From positions 1-29,799 of the IMG/VR virus record IMGVR_UViG_3300037117_000016: 29,799 nucleotides of DNA, one strand, 5' to 3'. The position numbers and the translations under genes were made by a program. The DNA is from a virus. Positions 4,967-25,819 of the stretch are shown piece after piece. Within the stretch, counting starts at the first letter, position 1; every line of letters starts with the position of its first letter. The notes beneath the pieces are model-generated. The model was not told the origin of the DNA. It saw only the letters and a program-made list of their open reading frames with translations, and made no database searches.

Positions 4967-5455
4967 CTAAGCGTTTGGTCCGAGTCTAAAACTACGCCAA
5001 TACGCTAGGTAGTCCATTGCACGGGCTGTCCACGTATTCCACAAAGGTTTGAGTTCTCCTCTGGTGTCTTTCAGTACTTGTTCTAAGAATCCCACCATGC
5101 GGTTGCAGTCTGCACAGAGTATTCCACGGTTGCAATTGCCACAGGTTAATTCTTTGTCACAGCATTCGTGATCATGGTCCACCGCCATACGGCGCTTGTC
5201 ATCTCCCTGCCTTGCTGGGCAAAGAGCACAGTGGTCACCTTGCTCTTTCAACTGAGTGTCATATTGCTCAGGTGTCATCTTGTGGCGTCGTTCCAGTTGC
5301 TTCCTACGCCCATACTCAGGTGTGTACCATTTACCTGTTGGTAGTGTTGCTTCCCATGCTGCTGTCGCCTCTTGTGTCTTGCGGCGAAACTCTGGGTCTT
5401 CAGCGTAGCGTTTCCTGCTGTTTGTCCTTCGGTCTTCTTGGCTCTTGTACGGCAT
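4967..5455 (-). CDS. Endonuclease VII-like free-standing homing endonuclease
   Basis: A 162-aa protein from MPYKSQEDRRTNSRKRY. A basic helical N-terminus precedes an Endonuclease VII-type His-Me finger. Visible parts are GDHCALCPARQ, the catalytic-region AVDHDHECCD, then CGNCNRGILCADCNRMVGFLE with the paired zinc Cys residues. It sits just downstream of the intron-bearing capsid gene and is followed by a terminator. It has its own promoter (5548-5576) and pseudoknot leader. It could supply the nuclease for the ORF-less intron nearby; that is inference. Confidence 0.85.
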   Translation of the reverse strand: MPYKSQEDRRTNSRKRYAEDPEFRRKTQEATAAWEATLPTGKWYTPEYGRRKQLERRHKMTPEQYDTQLKEQGDHCALCPARQGDDKRRMAVDHDHECCDKELTCGNCNRGILCADCNRMVGFLEQVLKDTRGELKPLWNTWTARAMDYLAYWRSFRLGPNA

Positions 5456-9149: not shown

Positions 9150-9620
9150 CTAGTTCTGAGTTTTCTGAGTCTGATATTTCTCGATGTAGTCTGCTGCTTT
9201 ACGGAGCAATTCTGGACTGTCTTTTAGATACCCTATAGCTCTGTTGCATGAACCACAAAGTAAACCTCTAGGATTCGGAGGCTCTACATGCTCATGATCA
9301 GCGGAAAGTTTTCTATCCACTTCTTCCTTGTCACATATAGCACACAACCCGTGTTGTTCTTCAAACTTTACATCGTAGGATTCCTGAGTCCAACCCGCTG
9401 CTACTAACCTACGAGCATGTGTTACAAGTATAACTTTTTCTGAGTTTTCTTTGTACCAATCTGCTGATTTCTTTTTCTGCTCTGCTTTGTGTGTGCGACG
9501 GTATTCTGCTTGTGCAGCCCGTGCAACTTCTGTGTTTCGATAGCACTGCATGCACAGTCCGTGACCGTAATGTTTACGCTCTGGGTGACATACACAGTCT
9601 TGTTTATATCCTCTTGCCAT
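9150..9620 (-). CDS. Endonuclease VII-like free-standing homing endonuclease
   Basis: The start MARGYKQDCVCHPERKHYGH at 9620 follows GATAGGAG. The N-terminus has a CxC...CMQC metal site. A basic helix follows, then the Endonuclease VII domain: HGLCAICDKEEVDRKLSADH, RGLLCGSCNRAIGYLKD, and the terminal helix LLRKAADYIEKY. Cys pairs and the DH.H catalytic region are intact. It sits between portal and scaffold genes, and its stop is 12 nt before the scaffold ATG. Its leader nearly matches that of the unrelated GIY-YIG gene at 15118-15711. Confidence 0.88.
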   Translation of the reverse strand: MARGYKQDCVCHPERKHYGHGLCMQCYRNTEVARAAQAEYRRTHKAEQKKKSADWYKENSEKVILVTHARRLVAAGWTQESYDVKFEEQHGLCAICDKEEVDRKLSADHEHVEPPNPRGLLCGSCNRAIGYLKDSPELLRKAADYIEKYQTQKTQN

Positions 9621-9701
9621 TTTATCTCCTATCAAGATCGAGAGGGAGGTGTGATAGGCACCTCCCAACTCTAACCCAAAGCCGCTAAGCCTTGAGATGT
9701 C
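9621..9701 (-). promoter_or_regulatory. Homing-endonuclease leader pseudoknot (copy 3)
   Basis: Starting directly at the portal stop codon, hairpin 1 is CTCAAGG/CTTTGGG around CTTAGCGG. Hairpin 2 is an 8-bp stem GGGAGGTG/CACCTCCC with loop CCTATCA (9652-9658). The loop is exactly complementary to TGATAGG (9628-9634), which includes the AGG of the endonuclease Shine-Dalgarno. Confidence 0.85.
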
Positions 9702-12299
9702 TTACTTCTGCGGTTGCTCTAAGGCGTGGGGTATAGCCTTTTTAGCCACAGCGTCGTTCAGTTGTGTAGCTGAGTGTTGAGTGAACATATCAGGAGTAGC
9801 ATTGATTTGGGCCTTTGCTAAAGCCTGCACTGCCACAGGAGGTGGCATTTTGCTCACATCTATGCTTATTGACTCAGAAGGTGGTTTATTCTGAGGAAGT
9901 TGGTTCGCCGCAGCAATTTTCTTAGCCATAGCGACGTGCTCGGTCCAGTGAAGCTTCAAGTTGGCAAAACATGCCTGTTGATCTGGAGCTCCAAATCTCA
10001 GCTTCTGCCCTTCAATCGAGTTCATTTTTTCAAAGCATTCCGACGCCTCTACGGCGTGATTTTCGCTTTCGTCTTGTGCTACCTGAACACTGCTGACTTG
10101 AGGCGGTACTGATTGCATCGCCTGTTTCAACTGCTCAACCATAGACCCTGCCTGTGGAGGAATCATTTGTCCTGTAGCCTGTGCGTTCTGCATACCTTCA
10201 TTAGCCTGATCCAACGCATCCTTCATTTTAAGGAACGCTGGGTTGTCTTGTGGAGGTTGCCGCAACAGCATCTCGAATTCATTCTGCTGTTTTGTAACTG
10301 ACGAAGCCCCTGGCACCTTGTAGTTCTTCATGCGCAGTGCGCTTGCAGTCTCAGCCAAATTGGATGGACTGAATACCCATTGTGCAAAAGGTGTGGCTGG
10401 GGCAGTAATGGCCTTGTCGATCATACCTACTATCTTCACTGCTTTTTGTTCTTCAGTTTCTGGGATAGATGGGTTGCTTTCTGCGTAGCATAGAACATTA
10501 CCACCAAGTAGATTGGCAGTATTGACTCTTATGTTTCCGTGTCCAGGGACATTCTGCGATAATTCTTTACCATCACGGCACTCTGCAGCGCATTTCACGG
10601 CCTGCCCTGCAGCGAGTGCGAATAAGTCCTGAATGTTATTCCATGGACAGCCCACACGCTGTAACGCTTGATCGCGCTGAATGACTGCGTTGCCTACTGT
10701 GTTCTCACCTGTAGCGTTGCCGAACAGGGAAGGCAGTGCACCCGAGATTTCCTCGGATAGAGTCGTGATAAACCATTTTATAAAGTCAGGCAGCGCAGGT
10801 TGATGCTGCGGAGTCGGCTCTACCATCATGTACTGTTCCATTGTTGTAAGCCCAGGTTGAGGCTGGAACGGCCCTATGCTTCCGGGCATATTGGGCTCAC
10901 TTTTGATCTTATCCATGTCGAACGCTTCGGCGTTCATCCACTTCTTAGGGATGGTGCGCTTGAAGAAATCATCCAGAAGATCAACCCAATCGTTGATGCG
11001 CTTCTGAACTGAGATTAGGGCTGTGCCCATCGCTCTGCGGTTCTGACCTTTGCCTGCTGTCGGGTGTCCGATGGCGATGTGGTCATCCATCTTCTCGTTG
11101 CGAGAAAAAGCATACTCTTGTCCTGCGCGAGCCAGTAGCACTCCGTCTGGGAATGCCTCTAGCAACTCTGCTTTGACTTCATCGCTAACGGCTTGGTCAA
11201 GGAACATTGAAGGTCGCATCCATGTGAACTTCACAGTGGTATGGCGACTCAATGAGTCTCCTGTCACGTACGCACCGAGTACTGCTTGGCGTACGTTTTC
11301 TCTAGCTATGCGATCAAGTTGTGTTGACGATTGTCCGTCAGTGCCGGGATTGATCTTGCTGGCAATCCACGGGAACATGCCGCGAACTAAAGCTACATCA
11401 TAGTCCAGCATCAACTGTACGAATGTCATTTCGGATACGTTATCAACGGAGATGGGAACCTTATGGTCCAGTTTCCCGTGAGCCGTGGTAACTTCCATGC
11501 CAAGAGGTTTCTTAGAGTTGTTTCCGACACCTGCTGAATTCAGCAGACCGTCGATGTCTCCTCCACTTTCGGACTCAGATTCAGTGACTTGTAAAAAATC
11601 CTCTTGTCCTTCTTGTCCAGTGGGGGTTCTATCGGGAGGGTTAAGTTCGTCCTCGGGTACAGTGGGAGTTCCTTGGTTTTCCTCGAATCCATACTTCTGA
11701 CCGTCGAGGTTGTAACGTGTCCACAAAAGGGCGCGATCTTCATTCCAGAAAATTCTAGCGCACTGAACTAAAAGTTCATGAAGGTTGTTGTTCCGTGCCC
11801 AGATGTCTTTGAAACGGTCAGCCTCTTCGGCTGCAATCTTATCTGGTCCCCACTCAGGGTTGCATGGGACAAACTCTACCTTTGGCACTTCGCGTGACAG
11901 CGCAGAGACGATTATGTCTCCCTTAGGGCCGTACACGTTCGTGTCATAAATACTGTTGTGGTTTCGTTCGTTGGCTTTCTTTCCCTGTCCACCACCGGGG
12001 AGTTCCCAGCCTCCGCGTTTTCCACGCAGCAAGTGCTGGTATCCTCTCTCGAAGTGTAGCGCTTCCCATGCCTGCTCAACTTCAAGCCTTCTGGCGGCTA
12101 CATCGGCTTTTGTGCAGATGTCATCAAGGGTAATCAACGTGCCACGTGCCTTATCGCTTAACTCCGCAAAGGGTTCTGGGCTGTAAGGAAAACTCGCATA
12201 AACCCCTAGAGGGCTGTCATTAGGAGACTCTGGTTGGTCGCCTTGCTTGTTAGAGCCTTCAGCCTCTACTCCTGTTGCTTCTGACACTACGTCTGGCAT
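9702..12299 (-). CDS. Portal protein (P22-type family)
   Basis: An 865-aa protein from MPDVVSEATGVEAEG, GGGAGA upstream. Its order fits large podovirus portals: an N-terminal charged region, the helical wing about residues 70-200 (NSIYDTNVYGPKGDIIVSAL, IFWNEDRALLWTRYNLDG), a mid segment TALISVQKRINDWVDLLDDF, NATGENTVGNAVIQRDQALQ, and a Gln/Pro-rich helical C-terminal barrel-like region. It lies between the small-protein cluster and the scaffold. The start overlaps the HNH gene by 41 nt. The ring role at the packaging vertex is family knowledge. Confidence 0.82.
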   Translation of the reverse strand: MPDVVSEATGVEAEGSNKQGDQPESPNDSPLGVYASFPYSPEPFAELSDKARGTLITLDDICTKADVAARRLEVEQAWEALHFERGYQHLLRGKRGGWELPGGGQGKKANERNHNSIYDTNVYGPKGDIIVSALSREVPKVEFVPCNPEWGPDKIAAEEADRFKDIWARNNNLHELLVQCARIFWNEDRALLWTRYNLDGQKYGFEENQGTPTVPEDELNPPDRTPTGQEGQEDFLQVTESESESGGDIDGLLNSAGVGNNSKKPLGMEVTTAHGKLDHKVPISVDNVSEMTFVQLMLDYDVALVRGMFPWIASKINPGTDGQSSTQLDRIARENVRQAVLGAYVTGDSLSRHTTVKFTWMRPSMFLDQAVSDEVKAELLEAFPDGVLLARAGQEYAFSRNEKMDDHIAIGHPTAGKGQNRRAMGTALISVQKRINDWVDLLDDFFKRTIPKKWMNAEAFDMDKIKSEPNMPGSIGPFQPQPGLTTMEQYMMVEPTPQHQPALPDFIKWFITTLSEEISGALPSLFGNATGENTVGNAVIQRDQALQRVGCPWNNIQDLFALAAGQAVKCAAECRDGKELSQNVPGHGNIRVNTANLLGGNVLCYAESNPSIPETEEQKAVKIVGMIDKAITAPATPFAQWVFSPSNLAETASALRMKNYKVPGASSVTKQQNEFEMLLRQPPQDNPAFLKMKDALDQANEGMQNAQATGQMIPPQAGSMVEQLKQAMQSVPPQVSSVQVAQDESENHAVEASECFEKMNSIEGQKLRFGAPDQQACFANLKLHWTEHVAMAKKIAAANQLPQNKPPSESISIDVSKMPPPVAVQALAKAQINATPDMFTQHSATQLNDAVAKKAIPHALEQPQK

Positions 12300-12840
12300 T
12301 GTTTATCTCCCGCCTGTAATCCATTGTCTTTGCTCCCTTGCTTGAATTACAGGGACCACAGAGAGGTTGGATATTGCTAATATCGCTGGTTCCACCTTTG
12401 GAAACAGGAACCACATGGTCTGGTGTCAATTTCTTTTTCTTACCGCAGCACAAACATTTATTGTGATACTTGTCACAAAGTGCAACCCATTGCTCATAAG
12501 TATAGGCACCGCCTGATTTGGCTTTAGCTGTGCGTCTTTTCTGAAGGATAGCAGAAACCTTTTCTGGGTTTTCTCTTTTCCATCTAGCAAGATTTTCTTT
12601 AACCAATTCAGTATTATCTGCCCTAAACTTTGCGCTGTACGCTAAAGCTGCTTCTCGGTTATTCTCGTAGTATGCCTTGCGGTTAGCCTTTACTTTGTCT
12701 GGGTTTTTCTTAGCCCACTTTGTATAAGAAGCACGAGACTTATTCCTATTTATTTTCTTCCACTCTCTACTTTGCAAAAGACTTTTTTCTTTATTAGCTA
12801 TGTAGTATGCGTGGCGCTCTTCTTTTGTCTTGTATGGCAT
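12259..12840 (-). CDS. HNH free-standing homing endonuclease
   Basis: A 193-aa protein starting MPYKTKEERHAYYIANKEKS. The first 120 residues are a Lys/Arg-rich helix with repeats of the WKKxNxxKxxA type. The last 75 form a classic HNH nuclease: CLCCGKKKKLTPDHVVPVSK, then SNIQPLCGPCNSSKG, with the two Cys pairs and the catalytic DH intact. It follows a pseudoknot leader and overlaps the portal start by 41 nt. The leader is almost identical to that of the different HNH gene at 19821-20201. Confidence 0.88.
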   Translation of the reverse strand: MPYKTKEERHAYYIANKEKSLLQSREWKKINRNKSRASYTKWAKKNPDKVKANRKAYYENNREAALAYSAKFRADNTELVKENLARWKRENPEKVSAILQKRRTAKAKSGGAYTYEQWVALCDKYHNKCLCCGKKKKLTPDHVVPVSKGGTSDISNIQPLCGPCNSSKGAKTMDYRREINNARRSVRSNRSRG

Positions 12841-12922
12841 TGTGTCCCTCCAAGGACGACTCAAGGAGGGTGTTGGAGCACCCTCCGAGTCTAGCCCACG
12901 CTGATCAAGGCGTGAGATGCTT
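12841..12922 (-). promoter_or_regulatory. Homing-endonuclease leader pseudoknot (copy 4)
   Basis: Begins at the stop codon of the 67-aa gene. Hairpin 1 is CTCACGC/GCGTGGG. Hairpin 2 is GGAGGGTG/CACCCTCC with loop CTCCAA (12873-12878), complementary to TTGGAG (12848-12853) at the Shine-Dalgarno. An outer GACTC/GAGTC stem extends hairpin 2 in this copy. Confidence 0.82.
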
Positions 12923-14758: not shown

Positions 14759-15121
14759 TTACACCTTGGCGGCGGTTGCCGCTTCCTCTGCTAATTCGGC
14801 TTCAATGCGTGCGTCGTGCTCTTCTTGCTCTGCTTGCCACGCAGTTTTCACCTTGGGTGATGTGAAGCTGGCGAAGCTGGGCTTCTCTGCACGTTTTCTC
14901 GTGGGGTCAATACCTACACGGGCATTAATGTTTTGCTCGTACATTCCGACCTTGGCTTGCAACAGTGCTTTCTCTGCACGGAGGTCCGCAATAACTTCAT
15001 TCATATCCTGACGCAACTGTTGGTTCTCCATTTGCAAACGAAGAATCTCAGTCTGCATTACTTCTGCAAGGCGTGAGCCAAGCAAATCGCGTAGGAACTG
15101 ACGTATGCTTTTACCTGTCAT
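14759..15121 (-). CDS. 120-aa coiled-coil protein
   Basis: Starts MTGKSIRQFLRDLLGSRLAE. Residues 20-65 are a heptad-rich helix (LRLQMENQQLRQDMNEVIAD), followed by a basic stretch and an acidic helical tail. The ATG overlaps the GIY-YIG stop as ATGA. The gene keeps its own GGAGGACTCAGA initiation site, so it probably predates the endonuclease insertion. The function is unknown; a virion or assembly role is possible. Confidence 0.65.
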   Translation of the reverse strand: MTGKSIRQFLRDLLGSRLAEVMQTEILRLQMENQQLRQDMNEVIADLRAEKALLQAKVGMYEQNINARVGIDPTRKRAEKPSFASFTSPKVKTAWQAEQEEHDARIEAELAEEAATAAKV

Positions 15122-15711
15122 TCTGAGTCCTCCATTTTAATAAGCCTTCCCATAGAGTCCCTTTTACGATGCTTCACAAGCTCTTTTCTTAACAGAACCG
15201 TACTAGGGGCTTGTTTGGCTCCTAGATGTCCTTTTCGATTGGCTTCTATTTGTTCTAGGGTTGCTTTCTTACCTTTGTTCCACGCGGTTCTACCTTTTCC
15301 CCGCTCACTCATTTTTCTTCGTGATGCTTCTGAGTGTTTAAACCCCAAATGCATAGGCGGCATATTTTTAAGTCTTTGCCTACCTTTTTCTCGTGTTCTT
15401 TCGGACACTATACGGGAAGACATCGCTTTACTTATTCTATCCCGAGCATCTTTTGACATGTTTCTGGTGCCTTCTCCACCATCAGTGAAGTTCCTAAGGC
15501 ATCCCAATCCTAAATCTTTGCGCCCGTAATACCATATCAGGGCTATTTCGTTTTCAATTGCTTCGTCTTCGTCCTTGGCTATGTAGAAAATAATTCTTCC
15601 TAAAGGTGGTGCAACTCCAATCCTGTGCCGAGCATATGCTCTATCCTTTTTTCCTTTTCCAACATAGTAAGGTGTTCCATCTTCTCGCAGCCACATATAT
15701 GTATAGAACAT
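15118..15711 (-). CDS. GIY-YIG free-standing homing endonuclease
   Basis: A 197-aa protein starting MFYTYMWLREDGTPYYVGKG at 15711. The YTYMW...YYVGKG motif is the GIY-YIG core, and GIY-YIG domain residues continue through ENEIALIWYYGRKD and LRNFTDGGEG. The C-terminal half has the basic repeats typical of modular DNA-binding tails (GFKHSEASRRKMSERGKG, AWNKGKKATLEQIEANRKG). It is a paralogue of the plus-strand gene at 25277-25819. It sits between large terminase and the coiled-coil gene, with a pseudoknot leader. Confidence 0.88.
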   Translation of the reverse strand: MFYTYMWLREDGTPYYVGKGKKDRAYARHRIGVAPPLGRIIFYIAKDEDEAIENEIALIWYYGRKDLGLGCLRNFTDGGEGTRNMSKDARDRISKAMSSRIVSERTREKGRQRLKNMPPMHLGFKHSEASRRKMSERGKGRTAWNKGKKATLEQIEANRKGHLGAKQAPSTVLLRKELVKHRKRDSMGRLIKMEDSE

Positions 15712-15791
15712 TTTGTCTCCTATCAAGATCGAGCGGGAGGTGTGATAGGCACCTCCCAACTCTAACGCTGGGTAATTAGTCCAACGATGTC
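15712..15791 (-). promoter_or_regulatory. Homing-endonuclease leader pseudoknot (copy 5)
   Basis: Starts at the terminase stop codon. Hairpin 1 is CGTTGG/CCAGCG around ACTAATTAC. Hairpin 2 is GGGAGGTG/CACCTCCC with loop CCTATCA (15743-15749), complementary to TGATAGG (15719-15725) at the Shine-Dalgarno. Hairpin 2 and the downstream strand match copy 3, while hairpin 1 matches copy 6 in its loop. Confidence 0.85.
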
Positions 15792-17481: not shown

Positions 17482-17997
17482 CTATTTCTTTTTCTCGTTC
17501 GTGACTACACCTAGTACCTCTGCAAAGGATGGCTGCTTGGGTTTTACAACCGCTTGATCTGCATCCACAACTTTGGGGTTCATTAAGTCTGGTGACACCA
17601 CGATGATTGTCTTCACAGGCTGAGTCGTAATCCTGTCTAAGTCTTGCTCTGATGACGCTTCTTTGCCCAGCGCACGTCTCATCACAATCTCGTACGCCTT
17701 CACCACCGCCATTGCTAACTTGGGGTCCGAGGTTTCGAGTTGCGAGATACGTAGGATGTTTCTAAAAGATACTTCGTGTTCTGTCATGCCCTCTTTATCT
17801 TTGTTGGGGCCATACAGAATCTTTCTTTCCTTACGGGTAAACTCTATGGTAGGGATAAGGGGCTTTGACTTCTTTACGAAGGTGCCCTTCTCGCTACGTA
17901 TCATTTCCCTTAGTCCACCCTCTTTGGTTCTTACGATTACCAACGACGTGCCTTCAGGAGGGTTTTGTGGTAAAGGCTTAGGTTCTGAATCTGCCAT
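17482..17997 (-). CDS. Putative small terminase subunit
   Basis: A 171-aa protein from MADSEPKPLPQNPPEG. The start is fused to the stop of the Endonuclease VII gene as TAATG. The N-terminus is Pro-rich. The middle is helical (SFRNILRISQLETSDPKLAM, VVKAYEIVMRRALGKEAS) and the C-terminus Val/Pro-rich. No DNA-binding motif is obvious. The small-terminase call rests on its place immediately before large terminase and on its size. Confidence 0.5.
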   Translation of the reverse strand: MADSEPKPLPQNPPEGTSLVIVRTKEGGLREMIRSEKGTFVKKSKPLIPTIEFTRKERKILYGPNKDKEGMTEHEVSFRNILRISQLETSDPKLAMAVVKAYEIVMRRALGKEASSEQDLDRITTQPVKTIIVVSPDLMNPKVVDADQAVVKPKQPSFAEVLGVVTNEKKK

Positions 17998-18476
17998 TAC
18001 TTTCCCCACTTTCTTAGATAAACTGCGGCAGCTTCACATAGTGTGGGACTTTCCTGTAGCATGCCTAGTGCTTGATTGCATGTACCGCAGAGAAGTTCTC
18101 TAGGAAGGTTTGTGAGGTGATCATGATCTGCATGTGGGGTTGCTTCAAAGGGTTTATTGCACAAAGCACAGCAGTTGTTCTGCTTCTCCCTAGTTTCCTC
18201 TACAGATTCTGGAGTCCATCCTAGTTTCTTCAACGCAGACTTGCGGGAGCGCTTTACTGATTTGGTACGAAATTCTGAATCGTTTTTGTAACGTTTCCTG
18301 CTTGCTTGCAATTGTTCTTCTTTGTTCTCAGAGTAATACTTCTTCATGTACTCTGAGTTTGGTTTACGCTTACCACGTTTTGCTTCATTCTTTAACTTCA
18401 AACACGCTATGCACGCCCCAATGTTATTCACATTGTCTGGCGTTCTTTCGTGTCCACGTTTGCAGTGTGTTTTCAT
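17997..18476 (-). CDS. Endonuclease VII-like free-standing homing endonuclease
   Basis: A 159-aa protein starting MKTHCKRGHERTPDNVNN, with CKRGH...CIAC as an N-terminal metal site. A long basic helix follows (KKYYSENKEEQLQASRKRYK). The nuclease domain shows NNCCALCNKPFEATPHADHD, ELLCGTCNQALGMLQESP and the final helix. The catalytic DHDH region and Cys pairs are intact. The stop overlaps the next ATG (TAATG). Preceded by pseudoknot leader copy 6. Confidence 0.88.
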   Translation of the reverse strand: MKTHCKRGHERTPDNVNNIGACIACLKLKNEAKRGKRKPNSEYMKKYYSENKEEQLQASRKRYKNDSEFRTKSVKRSRKSALKKLGWTPESVEETREKQNNCCALCNKPFEATPHADHDHLTNLPRELLCGTCNQALGMLQESPTLCEAAAVYLRKWGK

Positions 18477-18554
18477 TTTAACTCCTATATAGTTCGAACG
18501 GGGAGTGATATAGGCACTCCCCACTCTGCACTGGGTAATTAGTCCAGCGATTCT
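18477..18554 (-). promoter_or_regulatory. Homing-endonuclease leader pseudoknot (copy 6)
   Basis: Starts at the stop codon of the 106-aa gene. Hairpin 1 is CGCTGG/CCAGTG around ACTAATTAC. Hairpin 2 is GGGGAGTG/CACTCCCC with loop CCTATAT (18508-18514), complementary to ATATAGG (18484-18490). Compared with copies 3 and 5 both loop and Shine-Dalgarno strand changed in step. Confidence 0.85.
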
Positions 18555-19311: not shown

Positions 19312-19820
19312 GCTCGCCGCGCAGTCTGCGTTTTCGAGCGTAGAAACGTAGAAAGCCCCAACTCAGTTAAGAGTTGAGGCTTGGGTCCGTAGTTACTCAC
19401 TACGGAGATGTATTTGAAATGTTCCTGTTACCAGCCATGTTCGTGCATGGGCTTACGTAGTTCTGAGGGACAGGTTGCTCCTCTATACAACGTTCCCGAA
19501 CTCGTAAAGGAGCTACCTTGTGAGGATCGGGTGTCGCTGTGCGTTGATGTTGGCCTAGGTGCAACGCTTACACCCTATGCGGTTTCCGTACCCCGCGCCG
19601 TAGTCTGCGGCGGAAGCAGAGCGGACTGTGCATCTCGGGCAGGTTGCGCCTGACATGAAGCGTAGCTTATGCGCCTCTCCGAGTTGCTATGCGTCCACTA
19701 GGGACGACTTTCCGACAAGCCTGACCGAACGCGCTGTGCGTCAATCGTTATATGCCTCCCCTTCCAGTTAAGGGTTAGGGGAAGTCAGGAAACGTGTCGA
19801 AACTTTACTGCCTACTTCAT
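19312..19820. other. 509-base intergenic region with hairpins
   Basis: No convincing gene. At 19353-19382 a 12-bp hairpin with loop TTAACT (minus strand) matches the design of the terminator at 4919-4948 but has only a short TTTC tail. At 19386-19406 lies a perfect 8-bp repeat (TCCGTAGT/ACTACGGA). At about 19753-19783 a third, weaker GC-rich hairpin repeats the TTAACT loop. A 33-aa ORF at 19656-19555 with CPRC and CKRC pairs exists but has no ribosome-binding site. Confidence 0.5.
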
Positions 19821-20201
19821 TCAGCGAATGATGTCGCTGTGGAGTCCCAACGGCAGTTTAAATCTGAAAGGGTTTATGTATATGAGGCAGCACCTATGAG
19901 AACAAAATCTGTGGGGACTTCCATTCTCTCTGCATTCAATAGGCCCACCACACTGCTCACATACGCCTTTGAACATTTTCATCGGCTTTGCATGCAACTT
20001 GGTGTGTGCTGGTTTACTCATGCCTTCTAAGTTCTTAGGATTATTGTCTCTTTTATGTGTGTTCTCGTGATGCACAGTCTCAGGAAGATGACCGTTCTTT
20101 TTCCAAAACACTAAACGATGCTCATAGCAGTATCTTCCTCTGTACTTCTTACCCGGATAGTTCTCCGGTGCAACAACCAACGTGTATGGTCCGTTCTTCA
20201 T
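19821..20201 (-). CDS. HNH free-standing homing endonuclease (I-HmuI-like HNH subtype)
   Basis: A 126-aa protein from MKNGPYTLVVAPENYPG. The segment CYEHRLVFWKKNGHLP, then ETVHHENTHKRDNNPKNLEG, is the HNH core with His-His and Asn-Asn-Pro-x-Asn-Leu, as in phage HNH_3 proteins. After THTKLHAK-type residues a C4 cluster (CEQCGGPIECRENGSPHRFC) starts, but the protein ends soon after, so a DNA-binding tail may be shortened. It uses the leader sequence shared with the 12259-12840 gene. Confidence 0.8.
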   Translation of the reverse strand: MKNGPYTLVVAPENYPGKKYRGRYCYEHRLVFWKKNGHLPETVHHENTHKRDNNPKNLEGMSKPAHTKLHAKPMKMFKGVCEQCGGPIECRENGSPHRFCSHRCCLIYINPFRFKLPLGLHSDIIR

Positions 20202-20279
20202 TTGTCCCTCCAAGGACGACTCAAGGAGGGTGTTGGAGCACCCTCCGAGTCTAGCCCATAGCCGCTAAGCCATGAGATT
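20202..20279 (-). promoter_or_regulatory. Homing-endonuclease leader pseudoknot (copy 7)
   Basis: Starts at the stop of the 36-aa ORF. Hairpin 1 is CTCATGG/CTATGGG around CTTAGCGG, with an A-U to U-A exchange relative to copy 3. Hairpin 2 and the pairing strand (loop CTCCAA 20233-20238 with TTGGAG 20208-20213) are identical to copy 4, including the GACTC/GAGTC outer stem. Confidence 0.82.
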
Positions 20280-20390
20280 TTATCTTGTCCAGTTAGGCTG
20301 GATCACCCCGATTAACTTGGTGGGTATTGCGAGGGGCGCGTACGGCGTAGTCCCAGCCCAATGCTGGGTGCATGCCTCATTCTCTGCCAT
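20280..20390 (-). CDS. Possible 36-aa late protein
   Basis: ATG 20390 opens MAENEACTQHWAGTTPYAPL and continues AIPTKLIGVIQPNWTR to a TAA that coincides with the start of the endonuclease leader. Five other leaders also begin at or next to a stop codon. The ATG lies only 14 nt from the edge of the IS insertion, so its original 5' context may have been disrupted. There is no strong ribosome-binding site. The function is unknown. Confidence 0.45.
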   Translation of the reverse strand: MAENEACTQHWAGTTPYAPLAIPTKLIGVIQPNWTR

Positions 20391-20396
20391 CAACCC

Positions 20397-20404
20397 ATAA
20401 CTTT
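20397..20404. repeat. Target-site duplication, left copy (ATAACTTT)
   Basis: The 8-bp ATAACTTT directly abuts the outer end of the left inverted repeat and is repeated exactly at 21352-21359 outside the right one. Confidence 0.9.
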
Positions 20405-20438
20405 GGGAATTATATACTTGACTTCCGTGGGCCATAAA

Positions 20439-21008
20439 TCAGCCCCATTGCTCGGCGAATGCGGCGGCAATGCCGGGGTAAGTGATTGAACGCCGTTGCT
20501 GTCGGGTAAGACCGTTTTTGATTCCAGGAGATTCATAATGCACCCTCGGTACTCTTCCATCGACGATATTAGACGGCTGCAAGAGTGGAAGACCTTTCAA
20601 CCAAATACATGTTCCCTTGGTTTCGCCGTGCCCGAACTGCCAAGGCTGAATAATCTGGTCTGGCTTGCGCCAGTGGCTCGACATCAAGCCGATAGGGTTC
20701 TCGATAGCGATCTTTGGGATGTCGGCGTTGGCGAACAGCATGAACAGGTCTATCGCTTGTATCTGCTCTGCCTGCTTATCCTTCCACCATCGAGCACCGC
20801 TAACGGCGAGACGAGTGCAAGGCGGAAAAGCGATCATCATGTCCCACTGGTAGGTATAGGGCAGCAAAGCATCCCAAGCGTCACCTACGATATGGAACTG
20901 GCTCCCATCCGCTGCCGGGAGAATATCGAGGGACCAAGCATCATGTCCCCGCTCACGAAAAGCGCGTCTGACCGCGCCAGAAAACTCACACGCTATCAGG
21001 ATTTTCAA
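20439..21008 (-). CDS. DNA (cytosine-5) methyltransferase, compact phage type
   Basis: A 189-aa protein with preferred TTG start at 21008 giving the family-typical KILIACEFSGAVRRAF (SAM-binding motif I). AAAGAGAAG lies upstream. MIAFPPCTRLAVSGARWW contains the catalytic Pro-Cys motif IV. IAIENPIGLMSSHW is the motif VI region (ENP rather than ENV). It is much shorter than bacterial enzymes, so the target-recognition domain is minimal. It is cargo of the IS element, ending 8 nt inside the left repeat. It may protect phage DNA from restriction; activity is inferred. Confidence 0.82.
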   Translation of the reverse strand: MKILIACEFSGAVRRAFRERGHDAWSLDILPAADGSQFHIVGDAWDALLPYTYQWDMMIAFPPCTRLAVSGARWWKDKQAEQIQAIDLFMLFANADIPKIAIENPIGLMSSHWRKPDQIIQPWQFGHGETKGTCIWLKGLPLLQPSNIVDGRVPRVHYESPGIKNGLTRQQRRSITYPGIAAAFAEQWG

Positions 21009-21117
21009 GTTTCTTCTCTTTCCGCTTCCGTTTCTTGGCTGCTTTGCTCTTCGGTTTTGGCTTATAGGCCAGTACCACATCGGTTATCCTGTCCAACACT
21101 TCGGGCGCTTCTTTCAT
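20986..21117 (-). CDS. 43-aa Lys-rich protein in the IS cargo
   Basis: ATG 21117 overlaps the transposase-remnant stop as ATGA. It opens MKEAPEVLDRITDVVLAY and ends in a strongly basic tail (KSKAAKKRKRKEKKLENP), overlapping the methyltransferase start by 23 nt. This tight coupling suggests it is translated. The basic tail suggests nucleic-acid contact. No family is recognised. Confidence 0.55.
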   Translation of the reverse strand: MKEAPEVLDRITDVVLAYKPKPKSKAAKKRKRKEKKLENPDSV

Positions 21118-21299
21118 GCTGTCAGCCTCTTGTAAGTCAAACGCTGTCCGTCAACTGCGGAGATGAACGAGTCCAACCGGTCCAAGGTGTGATTGGCCAC
21201 GTTTCCAGCGTTAAGCCGGAAGGTGACTTCATTGACGTACCGCGCAACGTGCTTGGCGCTAACGTGGTGCCAGGTGGAACGTGCTGATTGTACTCTTGC
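21114..21299 (-). pseudogene. ISXO2-like transposase, C-terminal remnant
   Basis: An open frame of 61 codons, bounded upstream by TGA and with no start codon before the conserved part, reads WHHVSAKHVARYVNEVTFRL and then DGQRLTYKRLTA. This matches the end of IS1595/ISXO2 transposases (HHVS.KHL.RYV.EF.FR.N and GKRLTYK). About four fifths of a normal transposase is missing between it and the right inverted repeat. It is almost certainly non-functional. Confidence 0.78.
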
Positions 21300-21309
21300 T
21301 CATGAGTTA

Positions 21310-21338
21310 AAGATACTTGAGTTCCCCACGGAAGTCAA
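21310..21338 (-). promoter_or_regulatory. Promoter overlapping the right inverted repeat of the IS
   Basis: TTGACT (21333-21338, inside the repeat) and TATCTT (21310-21315) are 17 nt apart and point toward the methyltransferase. The left repeat has the same -35 but no -10, so transcription enters from one side only. Confidence 0.55.
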
Positions 21339-21351
21339 GTATATAATTCCC

Positions 21352-21359
21352 ATAACTTT
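21352..21359. repeat. Target-site duplication, right copy (ATAACTTT)
   Basis: Identical to 20397-20404 and directly outside the right inverted repeat. Confidence 0.9.
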
Positions 21360-21447
21360 TACAGGTGTCTTTACCGCGCAGTTCACACCTATTTACATGT
21401 CCCCAGTCCGAACTGGTCCGGCGATGCGCGACATGCTTGCAATTTGC

Positions 21448-21555
21448 GAGGGCGCTCTATCCAACTGAGCTACACTTCAGCGCCACGCCCGTCACTAGGA
21501 CTGTCTGCTATGGCGGCGTTACGAAGCGACAGGATTCGAACCTGTGGCCTCCCTC
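21448..21555 (-). tRNA. tRNA with permuted halves (3' half upstream of 5' half)
   Basis: On the minus strand 21555-21521 reads GAGGG AGGCC ACAGG TTCGAAT CCTGT CGCTTCG T: anticodon-stem 3' strand, variable loop, T arm, acceptor 3' strand. After 41 nt, 21479-21448 reads TGAAGTG TA GCTC AGTTGGATA GAGC G CCCTC: acceptor 5' strand, D arm, anticodon-stem 5' strand. Acceptor strands pair 7/7 (two G-U) and anticodon strands 5/5. U8, A14, G15-C48, G18G19, A21 and the T loop are canonical. The anticodon loop is interrupted, so the anticodon cannot be assigned. No CCA is encoded. Confidence 0.75.
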
Positions 21556-22802: not shown

Positions 22803-25280
22803 ATGCCCGAACTTGCGCAACAACTGCGACCGCTCGACCTGAGCGCTCTGCAGCCTCATCTCAAGGTGACTGTGATTCACGATGAGGCAGGACTTCTGCT
22901 GTTGAAAGATTATATCGCACGCAAGAGAGCCGCTGGGGACTTTTCCATTGGTCTCGACACGGAAACTAATATGTGCGATGACTTTTGGTTTCGCCGCTGC
23001 CGCTTAATTCAAATTGGGGACCGTGATGAGCAGTTTGTCATCGACCTCCTTTCCTTCGCTGGGTCCAAGGATAGACTCATTGCTACGCAGGGAGAATACG
23101 GCGCGAACTGCGATGGCGTCTACGACAAAATCTTTGAAGTACTGACGCCTGTGCTGTGCTCACGTGAGTTCTTGAAGGTGGGACAGAACCTTTCATTCGA
23201 ATACACCATCTTCTGGTGGAACTTCGGTGTGCGCATCTGGCACCTGTACTCTACAGACATGGCAGAGCGCGTGATTCAGGCCGGGACGATTGCACTGAAG
23301 AGGATGACCGAGTTCTCCATGGCAGCGATTGCTGCGCGTCACTTCCATTTGTTGGTTGATAAGAGCCTGCAAGAAACATTCGATCTGGAAACTCCGTTGA
23401 CTCAGGGACAGATTGACTACGCTGCATTTGATACGCGCTTTCCACATGCAATTAGGCAGGCGCAAGTCAACTTCATGACTAGGGATCAACTACTCACTAC
23501 AGCGCAGATTGAGAATGATGCCATAGGTACATTCACGGACATGCACCTGAACGGTCAGAACTTAGATGATGACCGTTGGATGCTGCGTATTCAGCACGTC
23601 ATGGAGCAGCGCGTGGGTGATTTGCATACCCTCGATGAAGGCTTCCTTCCTATTGTTGGAAAGAAGAACGAACAGATTGATGAAGCGGAGATAGAACGCC
23701 GCTACAAACATTGGCAGGAAGACTTCCAATTTCCAACGCAGCTTGAAACTGACTTAGCATTGCAAAAGCGCTTGGAGAAAGACAAAGAGAAGAAAACTGC
23801 TATTGGGGCTCTCTTGAAGGCAGAAGCCGCGAAACGCGCCGTGGCGAAAGCCGATGCTCGTGCTACTCACTCAGAACTTAGCAAACTACGCACTGTATGG
23901 AAGAACAAGTTAGAGGACTGTGAAGGTGATGCGTATATCAACTACGACTCACGCGACCAGTTGCTCGCGGCTCTGCAGCAGATGCCTGGGATGAGGATCA
24001 TAAAGGACACCACGGATGACACACTGCTGCGGTTCAACGACCGTCCGCTCATCCAGATTTTAAGAAGGTTCAAGAAGGGAAAGAAAGACACAGGAACTTA
24101 TGGTGCACAATGGACACAGCGTTGGATCACGAAGGCTTTGGCCAAAGAAGGATGGCGTCATCCAGTTGATGGAAGGCTACATTGTGTGTTTTCACAACTT
24201 GAAGCCGAGACTGGTCGCACATCTTCATCAAAACCCAACGCACAGAACTTGCCTAAGGATGATGAGGTACGTGCGTGCTTCATTGCTAGTCCTGCAGACA
24301 AAAATGAGCCAGATGGGTACTCTATAGTCACTGTAGATATGGAAGGTTGTGAACTTAGGATCATAGCAGAACTAGCAGATGCACAATCATGGATTACAGC
24401 CTTTGCAAAAGGACAAGATGTCCACAGTGTGTCTACCGAGATTTTGTACCCTGAGAAATGGCCTGCCTTGAAGGAAGAAGGCTGTGCATACTATGCACTC
24501 AATGAAAGAGGAGAACCTCAACGAAAAAAATGCAAATGCAAAGGACACTCTGAACTACGAGGGCACACCAAGGCAACAAACTTCCTTCTTGCTTATGGAG
24601 GCGGTCCATCGGCCTTGGCTGACGCTCTTGGTGTTACGGTAGACACAGCTAAGGAACTAATGCAACTGCACGAGTCTAGGTTTCCTGATATTTGGTCTTA
24701 CTTAGAGCGCAGTGGCAAACTCGCAAAGTCCATGCGAGAAGCCAGAGATATGTTTGGGCGACGTAGATCATTTCCAGTTCCTACAAGGGAGATGGCTAAG
24801 TTGTGGTGGCAAGATGAACACGAAGAAGATTTAGAACTGTCCGACGATGAAAAGAAAGCCAGCATCTTCAGGTTCAAATCTACACAGCTAAGAGAACCAA
24901 ACAAAACAGAACTGCAGCAACTAACGCATAGGAACCCTACTGAAAAAGAAATTGACAGGGCTCTATATGCACTAGCTGGAAGCGTGGAACGACGTGGTAA
25001 AAATCACTGTATTCAAGGAACAAACGCGAGCCTAATTAAGAGGGCTATGGGCTGTGGGGCAGACAAGGATGGAAAGTTTTATCTTTGGCACACACTTCCA
25101 CAATACAAAGCAAAGATAGTCAATATGGTCCACGACGAGTTGGTGCTTGAATGTCCAAAACGTTTTGGACAGGCAGTAGCTGAACTAGTAGAAGACGCCT
25201 TTGCCAGAGCAGCGGCAGAGGTAATGCACAAAGTAAAAATGACTGCGGACTATCACATAGCAGATCGGTGGATGAAGTGA
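22803..25280 (+). CDS. DNA polymerase, family A, with 3'-5' exonuclease
   Basis: An 825-aa replicative polymerase. Start MPELAQQLRPLDLS behind AAGGAGGAG (12-nt spacing); a GTG 14 codons earlier is less likely. The exonuclease shows IGLDTETN (Asp52, Glu54), GQNLSFEYTIFWW and YAAFDTRF (motif III). Polymerase motif A is VTVDMEGCELRIIAEL (about residue 510). Motif B is RGHTKATNFLLAYGGGP (about 585). Motif C is NMVHDELVLE (about 776). Between A and B lies a Cys-containing insertion (KKCKCKGH). Architecture is that of phage PolA/T7-type enzymes. The stop overlaps the GIY-YIG gene. Confidence 0.95.
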   Translation: MPELAQQLRPLDLSALQPHLKVTVIHDEAGLLLLKDYIARKRAAGDFSIGLDTETNMCDDFWFRRCRLIQIGDRDEQFVIDLLSFAGSKDRLIATQGEYGANCDGVYDKIFEVLTPVLCSREFLKVGQNLSFEYTIFWWNFGVRIWHLYSTDMAERVIQAGTIALKRMTEFSMAAIAARHFHLLVDKSLQETFDLETPLTQGQIDYAAFDTRFPHAIRQAQVNFMTRDQLLTTAQIENDAIGTFTDMHLNGQNLDDDRWMLRIQHVMEQRVGDLHTLDEGFLPIVGKKNEQIDEAEIERRYKHWQEDFQFPTQLETDLALQKRLEKDKEKKTAIGALLKAEAAKRAVAKADARATHSELSKLRTVWKNKLEDCEGDAYINYDSRDQLLAALQQMPGMRIIKDTTDDTLLRFNDRPLIQILRRFKKGKKDTGTYGAQWTQRWITKALAKEGWRHPVDGRLHCVFSQLEAETGRTSSSKPNAQNLPKDDEVRACFIASPADKNEPDGYSIVTVDMEGCELRIIAELADAQSWITAFAKGQDVHSVSTEILYPEKWPALKEEGCAYYALNERGEPQRKKCKCKGHSELRGHTKATNFLLAYGGGPSALADALGVTVDTAKELMQLHESRFPDIWSYLERSGKLAKSMREARDMFGRRRSFPVPTREMAKLWWQDEHEEDLELSDDEKKASIFRFKSTQLREPNKTELQQLTHRNPTEKEIDRALYALAGSVERRGKNHCIQGTNASLIKRAMGCGADKDGKFYLWHTLPQYKAKIVNMVHDELVLECPKRFGQAVAELVEDAFARAAAEVMHKVKMTADYHIADRWMK

Positions 25281-25819
25281 AAAACTTTTACACATACATG
25301 TGGCTTAGGGAAAACGGCACACCGTACTATGTGGGTAAGGGAAAAGGACGAAGAGCGTTCACAAGTAATGGACACAATGTTCTTCGTCCTGAGTATGATG
25401 CACGTATTTTTATTCAGTATTGGGAATCCGAAGAAAAAGCGTTTGAAATGGAGATGTGGCTTATCTCTTTGTATGGACGTAAAGACAATGGTACAGGGGT
25501 TCTTAGGAACCTCACAGACGGTGGAGAGAACCCTCCTAGGATGTTAGGTAACACACATGCCAAAGGTAAGAAACATTCAGCCGAGGCTAATGCTAGGAAA
25601 AGTGAAAGAGGAAAACTTAGAAAACAGTCAATAGAAACCAGAGAAAAACTCAGTCGTATAAAGAAAGGAAAAACCAATGGGTTGGAAGGCAGGCCAAAGA
25701 CTGAGGAAACTAAAAGGAAAATAAGAGAGGCGCACCTCGGAATGAAAGCATCTGAAGAATCTAGGAAGAAGATGAGTGAATCCGCAAAACATAGAAAGAA
25801 GAAACCATGTCCTATGTGA
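25277..25819 (+). CDS. GIY-YIG free-standing homing endonuclease
   Basis: A 180-aa protein; the GTG at 25277 overlaps the polymerase stop (GTGA) with GGTGG upstream. An in-frame GTG at 25268 is possible. NFYTYMWLRENGTPYYVGKG is the GIY-YIG core. EMEMWLISLYGRKD carries the conserved Glu, and FLRNLTDGGENPPR-like residues follow as in the paralogue at 15118-15711. The tail has repeated basic modules (HSAEANARKSERGKLRKQS). No pseudoknot leader precedes it; it relies on coupling to the polymerase gene. Confidence 0.85.
   Translation: MKNFYTYMWLRENGTPYYVGKGKGRRAFTSNGHNVLRPEYDARIFIQYWESEEKAFEMEMWLISLYGRKDNGTGVLRNLTDGGENPPRMLGNTHAKGKKHSAEANARKSERGKLRKQSIETREKLSRIKKGKTNGLEGRPKTEETKRKIREAHLGMKASEESRKKMSESAKHRKKKPCPM

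What the first reader, a model, noticed from the sequence alone, without database searches (positions are those of the whole stretch)
21448..21555. Circularly permuted tRNA gene in a phage
The 3' half (anticodon-stem 3' strand, variable loop, T arm, acceptor 3' strand; 21555-21521) lies upstream of the 5' half (acceptor 5' strand, D arm, anticodon-stem 5' strand; 21479-21448) on the same strand, 41 nt apart. The separated acceptor strands pair 7/7 and the anticodon strands 5/5, and all tertiary-contact positions that can be checked are canonical, which chance would hardly give. Permuted tRNAs are established in some algae and archaea. A phage case would need a circularisation route, for example a permuted self-splicing intron or ligase. 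Both flanks are structured, and CGATGC upstream is complementary to GCATCG downstream.
Basis: partly seen in the sequence, partly recalled or inferred. Interest (0 to 1): 0.95.

Follow-up and report, generated by a model that had tools for sequence, protein, structure and literature searches.

The report
Phage tRNA-mimic RNA, permuted order
A soil phage carries an evolutionarily maintained RNA whose parts fold like a tRNA read in shuffled order; it is most likely not a tRNA gene but a tRNA look-alike with the same layout as the tRNA-mimicking half of bacterial Y RNAs, lacking the stem that normally holds the Ro60 protein.

Summary
At 21448-21555 (minus strand) a T arm, 7-bp acceptor and D arm, closed by a 5-bp anticodon-like stem, lie in permuted order. 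Six further modules in four related soil-phage contigs keep the fold with different bases (five long modules: 96% of cells paired, 12 of 25 pairs changed on both sides, 0/500 shuffles).

Permuted order closed at the acceptor end is the architecture of the tRNA-mimic domain of bacterial Y RNA YrlA (RF02553), the only Rfam match (30.2 bits, cut-off 69). A relative carries, in the same neighbourhood, a Ro60 gene with a YrlA just upstream. A model built from window-type modules also finds three Ro60-adjacent phage Y RNAs. No flank supplies an anticodon loop with U33 and purine 37 in 6 of 7 modules; no group I hit.

Differences from YrlA: no Ro60-binding motif, no Ro60 in this contig or in a 104-kb module-bearing relative, a 42-nt structured acceptor extension, sometimes tandem modules. 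I call it a Ro60-free, YrlA-topology tRNA mimic: a new variant of a known kind. Function is inferred; maturation into a tRNA by ligation is possible but unlikely.

The parts
21448..21555 (-). whole permuted tRNA-like module (YrlA-effector topology)
   Evidence: cmscan RF02553 30.2 bits over 21449-21553; R1 model 114.7 bits, by construction; covariation
21551..21555 (-). closing (anticodon-like) stem, first strand GAGGG
   Evidence: pairs 5/5 with 21448-21452; 4 of 5 pairs change on both sides across relatives
21529..21545 (-). T arm ACAGG-TTCGAAT-CCTGT
   Evidence: 5/5 paired, canonical TTCGAAT loop
21522..21528 (-). acceptor-like stem, first strand CGCTTCG
   Evidence: 7/7 with 21473-21479; 5 of 7 pairs change on both sides across relatives
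21480..21521 (-). 42-nt structured acceptor extension (linker): stem CGCC 21515-21512 / GGCG 21484-21481 and conserved loop AGCAGAC..CCTAGTG..GGCG
   Evidence: linker motif shared with L042, L003 and L043; no module outside this clade found by pattern in viral contigs, none in genome contigs; stem covaries
21473..21479 (-). acceptor-like stem, second strand TGAAGTG
21454..21470 (-). D arm GCTC-AGTTGGATA-GAGC with GG in the loop
   Evidence: 4/4 paired; invariant stem in relatives
21448..21452 (-). closing (anticodon-like) stem, second strand CCCTC

Best explanation
It is a phage-encoded tRNA mimic built like the effector domain of the bacterial Y RNA YrlA: T arm, then an acceptor stem closed by an extension, then D arm, all held by a short stem where a tRNA would have its anticodon arm. 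It has lost, or never had, the Ro60-binding stem. It probably works as a folded RNA in its own right, transcribed within a cluster of tRNAs and other non-coding RNAs, by presenting a tRNA elbow to tRNA-binding proteins (tRNA-modification enzymes, PNPase or other nucleases, or host tRNA-targeting effectors). It does not need to be circularised or to decode. Shown: permuted fold, its conservation by compensatory change, shared topology with Ro60-linked Y RNAs of related phages, absence of a Ro60 motif and of a usable anticodon loop. Inferred: transcription, absence of ligation, and the bound partner.
For: Only Rfam match is YrlA RF02553, E 1.6e-4, spanning the tRNA-like core 23-86 of 114. Seven modules in five phage lineages with covarying acceptor, closing and extension stems. 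A relative (L038/G006, terminase 61% identical) has in the same neighbourhood a Ro60 gene (465 aa, TROVE plus vWA) with a full-length YrlA match ending about 30 nt upstream. Two further Ro60-bearing viral contigs (L072, L073) have YrlA beside the Ro60 gene; in a third (L071) cmscan finds none there. Model R1, built without any Y RNA, finds the three Ro60-linked Y RNAs at 42-55 bits and the two held-out short modules at 56-60, against at most 38 for tandem normal tRNAs. Two modules have acceptors closed by short loops (L042:7278-7343, L003:155-228), as in YrlA. No U33/R37 loop can be made from the flanks in 6 of 7 modules.
Against: YrlA score is below the Rfam cut-off (30.2 vs 69), though the Ro60-linked phage Y RNAs also miss it (35-48.5). 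No Ro60 in the contig or in 104-kb relative G002, which carries a module. The 5-bp closing stem is more tRNA-like than in the Ro60-linked RNAs. The L006 module resembles that phage's own tRNA-Gly and keeps a TCCA after the acceptor, suggesting tRNA ancestry. The gap between the weakest Ro60-linked Y RNA (41.8 bits) and the best tandem-tRNA false match (38.3) is small. No expression or binding data.
Confidence: 0.64

Rival explanations
1. A true circularly permuted tRNA gene: the transcript is trimmed and its ends are ligated at the anticodon (for example by phage RtcB or an Rnl-type ligase), after which RNase P and a 3' nuclease cut out the linker and a working tRNA results.
For: Complete tRNA body including 5-bp anticodon stem; halves swapped back are called tRNA; L006 module keeps TCCA after the acceptor and its phage G002 encodes both RtcB and an ATP-dependent RNA ligase.
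Against: No U33/R37 loop in 6 of 7 modules; no CCA-like end in the other long modules; no group I match; a conserved, covarying linker would not be expected of discarded sequence; only AAAA separates the tandem modules of L042; ligases also occur in G001, where only a weak match (15.4 bits) and no module was found.
Confidence: 0.13
2. Remnant of tandemly duplicated tRNA genes: the 3' half of one copy and the 5' half of the next survive and decay without function. Two copies of one tRNA automatically give pairing acceptor strands.
For: Tandem tRNA-Val genes in G019 give the best false match, 38.3 bits; the cluster contains normal tRNA genes in relatives.
Against: The four modules that share the linker must be orthologous, yet 11 of 25 pairs differ on both sides while pairing is kept; outer halves are absent throughout; the extension stem covaries too.
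Confidence: 0.13
3. A genuine YrlA used with a Ro60 encoded elsewhere in this phage or by the host.
For: Topology, synteny with a Ro60-plus-YrlA locus in L038; the contig is a 29.8-kb fragment.
Against: The motif shared by the Ro60-linked phage Y RNAs (GTTACTTC upstream, TTGTTCC downstream) is not near the module; no long stem brackets it; no TROVE protein in the 104-kb module-bearing relative.
Confidence: 0.07
4. A permuted group I intron-exon arrangement producing a circular tRNA.
For: Order of the halves, structured flanks and a genome rich in homing-endonuclease-type ORFs.
Against: No group I match up to E 10; the flanking structured element stands alone without the module in L008 and the module occurs without it in L042.
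Confidence: 0.03

Closest known systems
YrlA bacterial Y RNA (Rfam RF02553), tRNA-mimic domain
   Same: Permuted order T arm, acceptor hairpin, D arm; canonical T and D loops; found next to Ro60 in related phages; YrlA is reported from mycobacteriophages (Chen et al. 2014 as cited in PMC12282133) and other phages (PMC7765460)
   Different: No Ro60-binding stem or motif, 5-bp anticodon-like closing stem, 42-nt conserved acceptor extension, tandem modules in some relatives, no Ro60 gene beside it, score below the family cut-off
Circularly permuted tRNA genes of algae and archaea (review PMC3978253)
   Same: 3' half upstream of 5' half with a linker joining the acceptor strands
   Different: No usable anticodon loop at the junction in 6 of 7 modules, CCA-like end in only one long module, conserved structured linker, tandem repeats, no splicing element found
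Permuted intron-exon group I constructs
   Same: Order of exon halves
   Different: No group I core detected

Membership tests
YrlA (RF02553) | tRNA-like domain in order T arm, closed acceptor, D arm | tested here: met
YrlA (RF02553) | Score at or above the Rfam gathering threshold | tested here: not met
   30.2 vs 69 bits; Ro60-linked phage Y RNAs score 35-48.5
YrlA (RF02553) | Ro60-binding stem formed by the 5' and 3' ends with conserved motif | tested here: not met
   No GTTACTTC/TTGTTCC motif near the module on its strand; flanks do not pair in a conserved way
YrlA (RF02553) | Ro60/Rsr gene nearby | tested here: inconclusive
   Absent from the 29.8-kb window and from G002; present in syntenic position in L038
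YrlA (RF02553) | Binds Ro60 and PNPase; modified by TruB and DusA | not testable with these tools
   needs biochemistry; known for YrlA from PMC8394870
Circularly permuted tRNA gene | 3' half before 5' half, all stems pair | tested here: met
Circularly permuted tRNA gene | Junction gives an anticodon loop with U33 and purine 37 | tested here: not met
   0 possible 7-nt loops in the window; only L003_2 of seven has any
Circularly permuted tRNA gene | CCA-ready acceptor end | tested here: inconclusive
   Window TAA, L042 ACA, L006 TCCA; CCA can be added enzymatically
Circularly permuted tRNA gene | Circular intermediate and mature charged tRNA | not testable with these tools
   needs RNA from infected cells
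Permuted group I intron | Group I core split across the flanks | tested here: not met
   No match up to E 10 in 601 nt; a split core could escape the model

The most novel reading that the evidence does not exclude
The module is a real circularly permuted tRNA gene of a bacterial virus, matured by RNA ligation at an unusual anticodon loop (phage RtcB or Rnl) instead of splicing; to my knowledge it would be the first of its kind in bacteria or their phages.
Probability: 0.12. Interest if true: 0.92.

Novelty: new variant of a known kind. Interest (0 to 1): 0.55.

Why it matters
The tRNA-mimic part of Y RNAs has been described together with a Ro60-binding stem. A family of modules that keeps only the mimic, sometimes in tandem, would show that the mimic has a job of its own, and it sits in phages where Ro60, RtcB and RNA ligases come and go. 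It also gives a caution: permuted tRNA order in bacteria or phages can be a Y-RNA-type mimic and should not be read at once as a permuted tRNA gene.

Tried and rejected
Permuted group I intron: no Rfam hit up to E 10. Flanking helix CGATGC/GCATCG: not conserved; GCATCG belongs to a separate element present without the upstream partner. Normal-order tRNA reading in tandem loci: acceptor strands pair only 2/7 and 4/7. Extra YrlA-like hits in G002 near 51 kb and in L038 6.8 kb: tandem normal tRNAs. Best false match of R1, G019:55400: tandem tRNA-Val genes. Phage database BLAST: only short matches, mostly to tRNA arms. Two linker patterns in viral contigs and one in genome contigs: no module outside this clade. 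tmRNA considered: ARAGORN reports none. Folding energy: not informative.

Full report
The observation. The minus strand of the window reads, from 21555 to 21448: GAGGG, AGGCC, a T arm (ACAGG TTCGAAT CCTGT), CGCTTCG, a 42-nt linker, TGAAGTG, TA, a D arm (GCTC AGTTGGATA GAGC), G, CCCTC. ARAGORN reports no tRNA and Rfam at its own cut-offs reports nothing.

What the family libraries say. A sensitive Rfam scan of 601 nt gives a single match on either strand: YrlA, the bacterial Y RNA, 21553-21449, 30.2 bits, E 1.6e-4, covering the tRNA-like core of the model and not its outer stem. The alignment shows why. In YrlA the tRNA mimic is itself in permuted order (T arm, acceptor stem closed by a loop, D arm) because the RNA enters and leaves through what would be the anticodon arm. 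The literature describes YrlA as a modular RNA with a basal stem that holds the Ro60-like protein Rsr and a tRNA-like domain that binds PNPase and is modified by DusA and TruB (PMC8394870). YrlA has been reported from mycobacteriophages and other phages (PMC12282133, PMC7765460), and TROVE proteins from jumbo phages (PMC7824862).

Relatives. The terminase and DNA polymerase of the window find about 50 loci of related phages in IMG/VR, contigs up to 104 kb. In the same neighbourhood, several relatives have a cluster of RNA genes including normal tRNA-Ala and tRNA-Asn. A structural descriptor, plus reading by eye for two that it missed, gives the same permuted module in L006, in L043, twice in L042 and twice in L003. 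With strict settings it gives none in the other relatives, among them L030 with 11 normal tRNAs; besides the modules it picks up only the Ro60-linked Y RNA of L072. With looser settings it gives no convincing module in 537 kb of unrelated viral DNA.

Selection on the fold. Acceptor and closing stems differ in sequence among the modules yet pair within each (acceptor 6-7 of 7, closing stem 4-5 of 5). Of all 5040 ways to re-assign the strands among modules, none pairs better than the true one for either stem. On the alignment of the five long modules, 96% of cells are paired against 40-50% when strands are slid, 12 of 25 pairs change on both sides, and no shuffle of 500 reaches this. Because tandem copies of one tRNA would pair automatically, I repeated the count on the four modules that share the linker sequence and so descend from one permuted ancestor: 96% paired, 11 of 25 pairs changed on both sides. 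The fold has therefore been maintained in permuted form. Folding energy alone does not show it.

Link to Ro60. One relative, G006 (L038; terminase 61% identical), encodes a 465-aa Ro60 protein with TROVE and vWA domains in the same stretch upstream of the terminase, with a full-length YrlA match ending about 30 nt before it, including a terminal stem TGTCGA...TCGACA. Ro60 genes of three more viral contigs were fetched; two of them have YrlA beside the gene, and in the third (L071) cmscan finds none there. A covariance model made only from window-type modules scores these three Ro60-linked Y RNAs 54.8, 42.2 and 41.8 bits and the two short modules that were held out 60.3 and 55.6 bits. Tandem normal tRNAs reach at most 38.3. 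The structural kinship is thus supported, with a narrow margin for the weakest.

What it lacks. The motifs that I see shared by the Ro60-linked phage RNAs (GTTACTTC before, TTGTTCC after the tRNA-like part) are not near the module on its strand, and no long stem brackets it. Ro60 is absent from the window and from the 104-kb relative G002, which carries a module. The window is a 29.8-kb fragment, so the rest of this phage is unknown.

Can it become a tRNA? If the ends were joined, the anticodon loop must come from the flanks. No 7-nt combination gives U33 with a purine at 37 in six of seven modules, the window included. Only one long module (L006, TCCA) keeps a CCA-like end. Swapping the halves back and supplying a loop and ACCA makes ARAGORN call a tRNA in all seven, but also in the Ro60-linked Y RNA of L072, so this does not decide. 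The module-bearing phage G002 encodes RtcB and an ATP-dependent RNA ligase, which keeps a ligation route conceivable. G001 has both ligases without a convincing module.

Mechanism. The best reading is a free-standing tRNA mimic with the layout of a Y-RNA effector domain, working as folded RNA through its elbow. Shown: sequence, fold, conservation and kinship in architecture. Inferred: transcription, lack of ligation, and the partner. I do not file it as YrlA, because the Ro60-binding stem and the score threshold were tested and not met; it works like the YrlA effector domain. Direction of descent is open: the L006 module is close to that phage's tRNA-Gly, so the modules may have arisen from tRNA duplication and converged on YrlA topology.

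Verdict. Real, conserved and unusual, but its most exciting reading is not supported. New variant of a known kind.

Noticed in passing
window 20404-21352: Perfect 28-nt inverted repeats (TGGGAATTATATACTTGACTTCCGTGGG) bound a segment with a DNA-methyltransferase-like ORF (20439-21080, phrog_757); AAGTTA is repeated outside both ends and relative L042 has the uninterrupted site, so it looks like a terminal-inverted-repeat insertion without a transposase.
   Followed up: partly
window 19321-19825, minus strand: About 500 nt of conserved non-coding sequence beside the tRNA-like cluster (77% over 324 nt in L037; pieces in L005, L008, L010, L042, L043), no convincing Rfam match; a candidate large structured RNA comparable in setting to ROOL or GOLLD (comparison from memory, not tested).
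   Followed up: partly
window 20310-20400, minus strand: Conserved element of tRNA size ending in TACCCACCA without a canonical T loop, 93% identical in L042 and 78% in L005; not called by ARAGORN or Rfam.
   Followed up: no
window 21355-21445, minus strand: Conserved structured element (GCATGTCGCGCATCG..CCAGTTCGGACTGG..GACATGT..AGGTGTGAACTGCGCGG) present also in L008 without the permuted module; possible pseudoknot CGCGCA/TGCGCG in the window and L043.
   Followed up: partly
L038:4724-6277, L072:650-2095, L073:3792-5419: Phage Ro60 genes with adjacent YrlA RNAs below the Rfam cut-off; further Y-like hairpins without a tRNA part lie upstream in L071 and L073.
   Followed up: partly
window 4967-5455, 9150-9668, 12259-12864, 15118-15759, 17997-18524, 19821-20213, 25268-25819: Many homing-endonuclease-type ORFs (Endonuclease_7, HNH, NUMOD3); two (9150-9668, 15118-15759) share the leader LGGAYHTS.SILIGDKM and a third (17997-18524) has a related one.
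   Followed up: no
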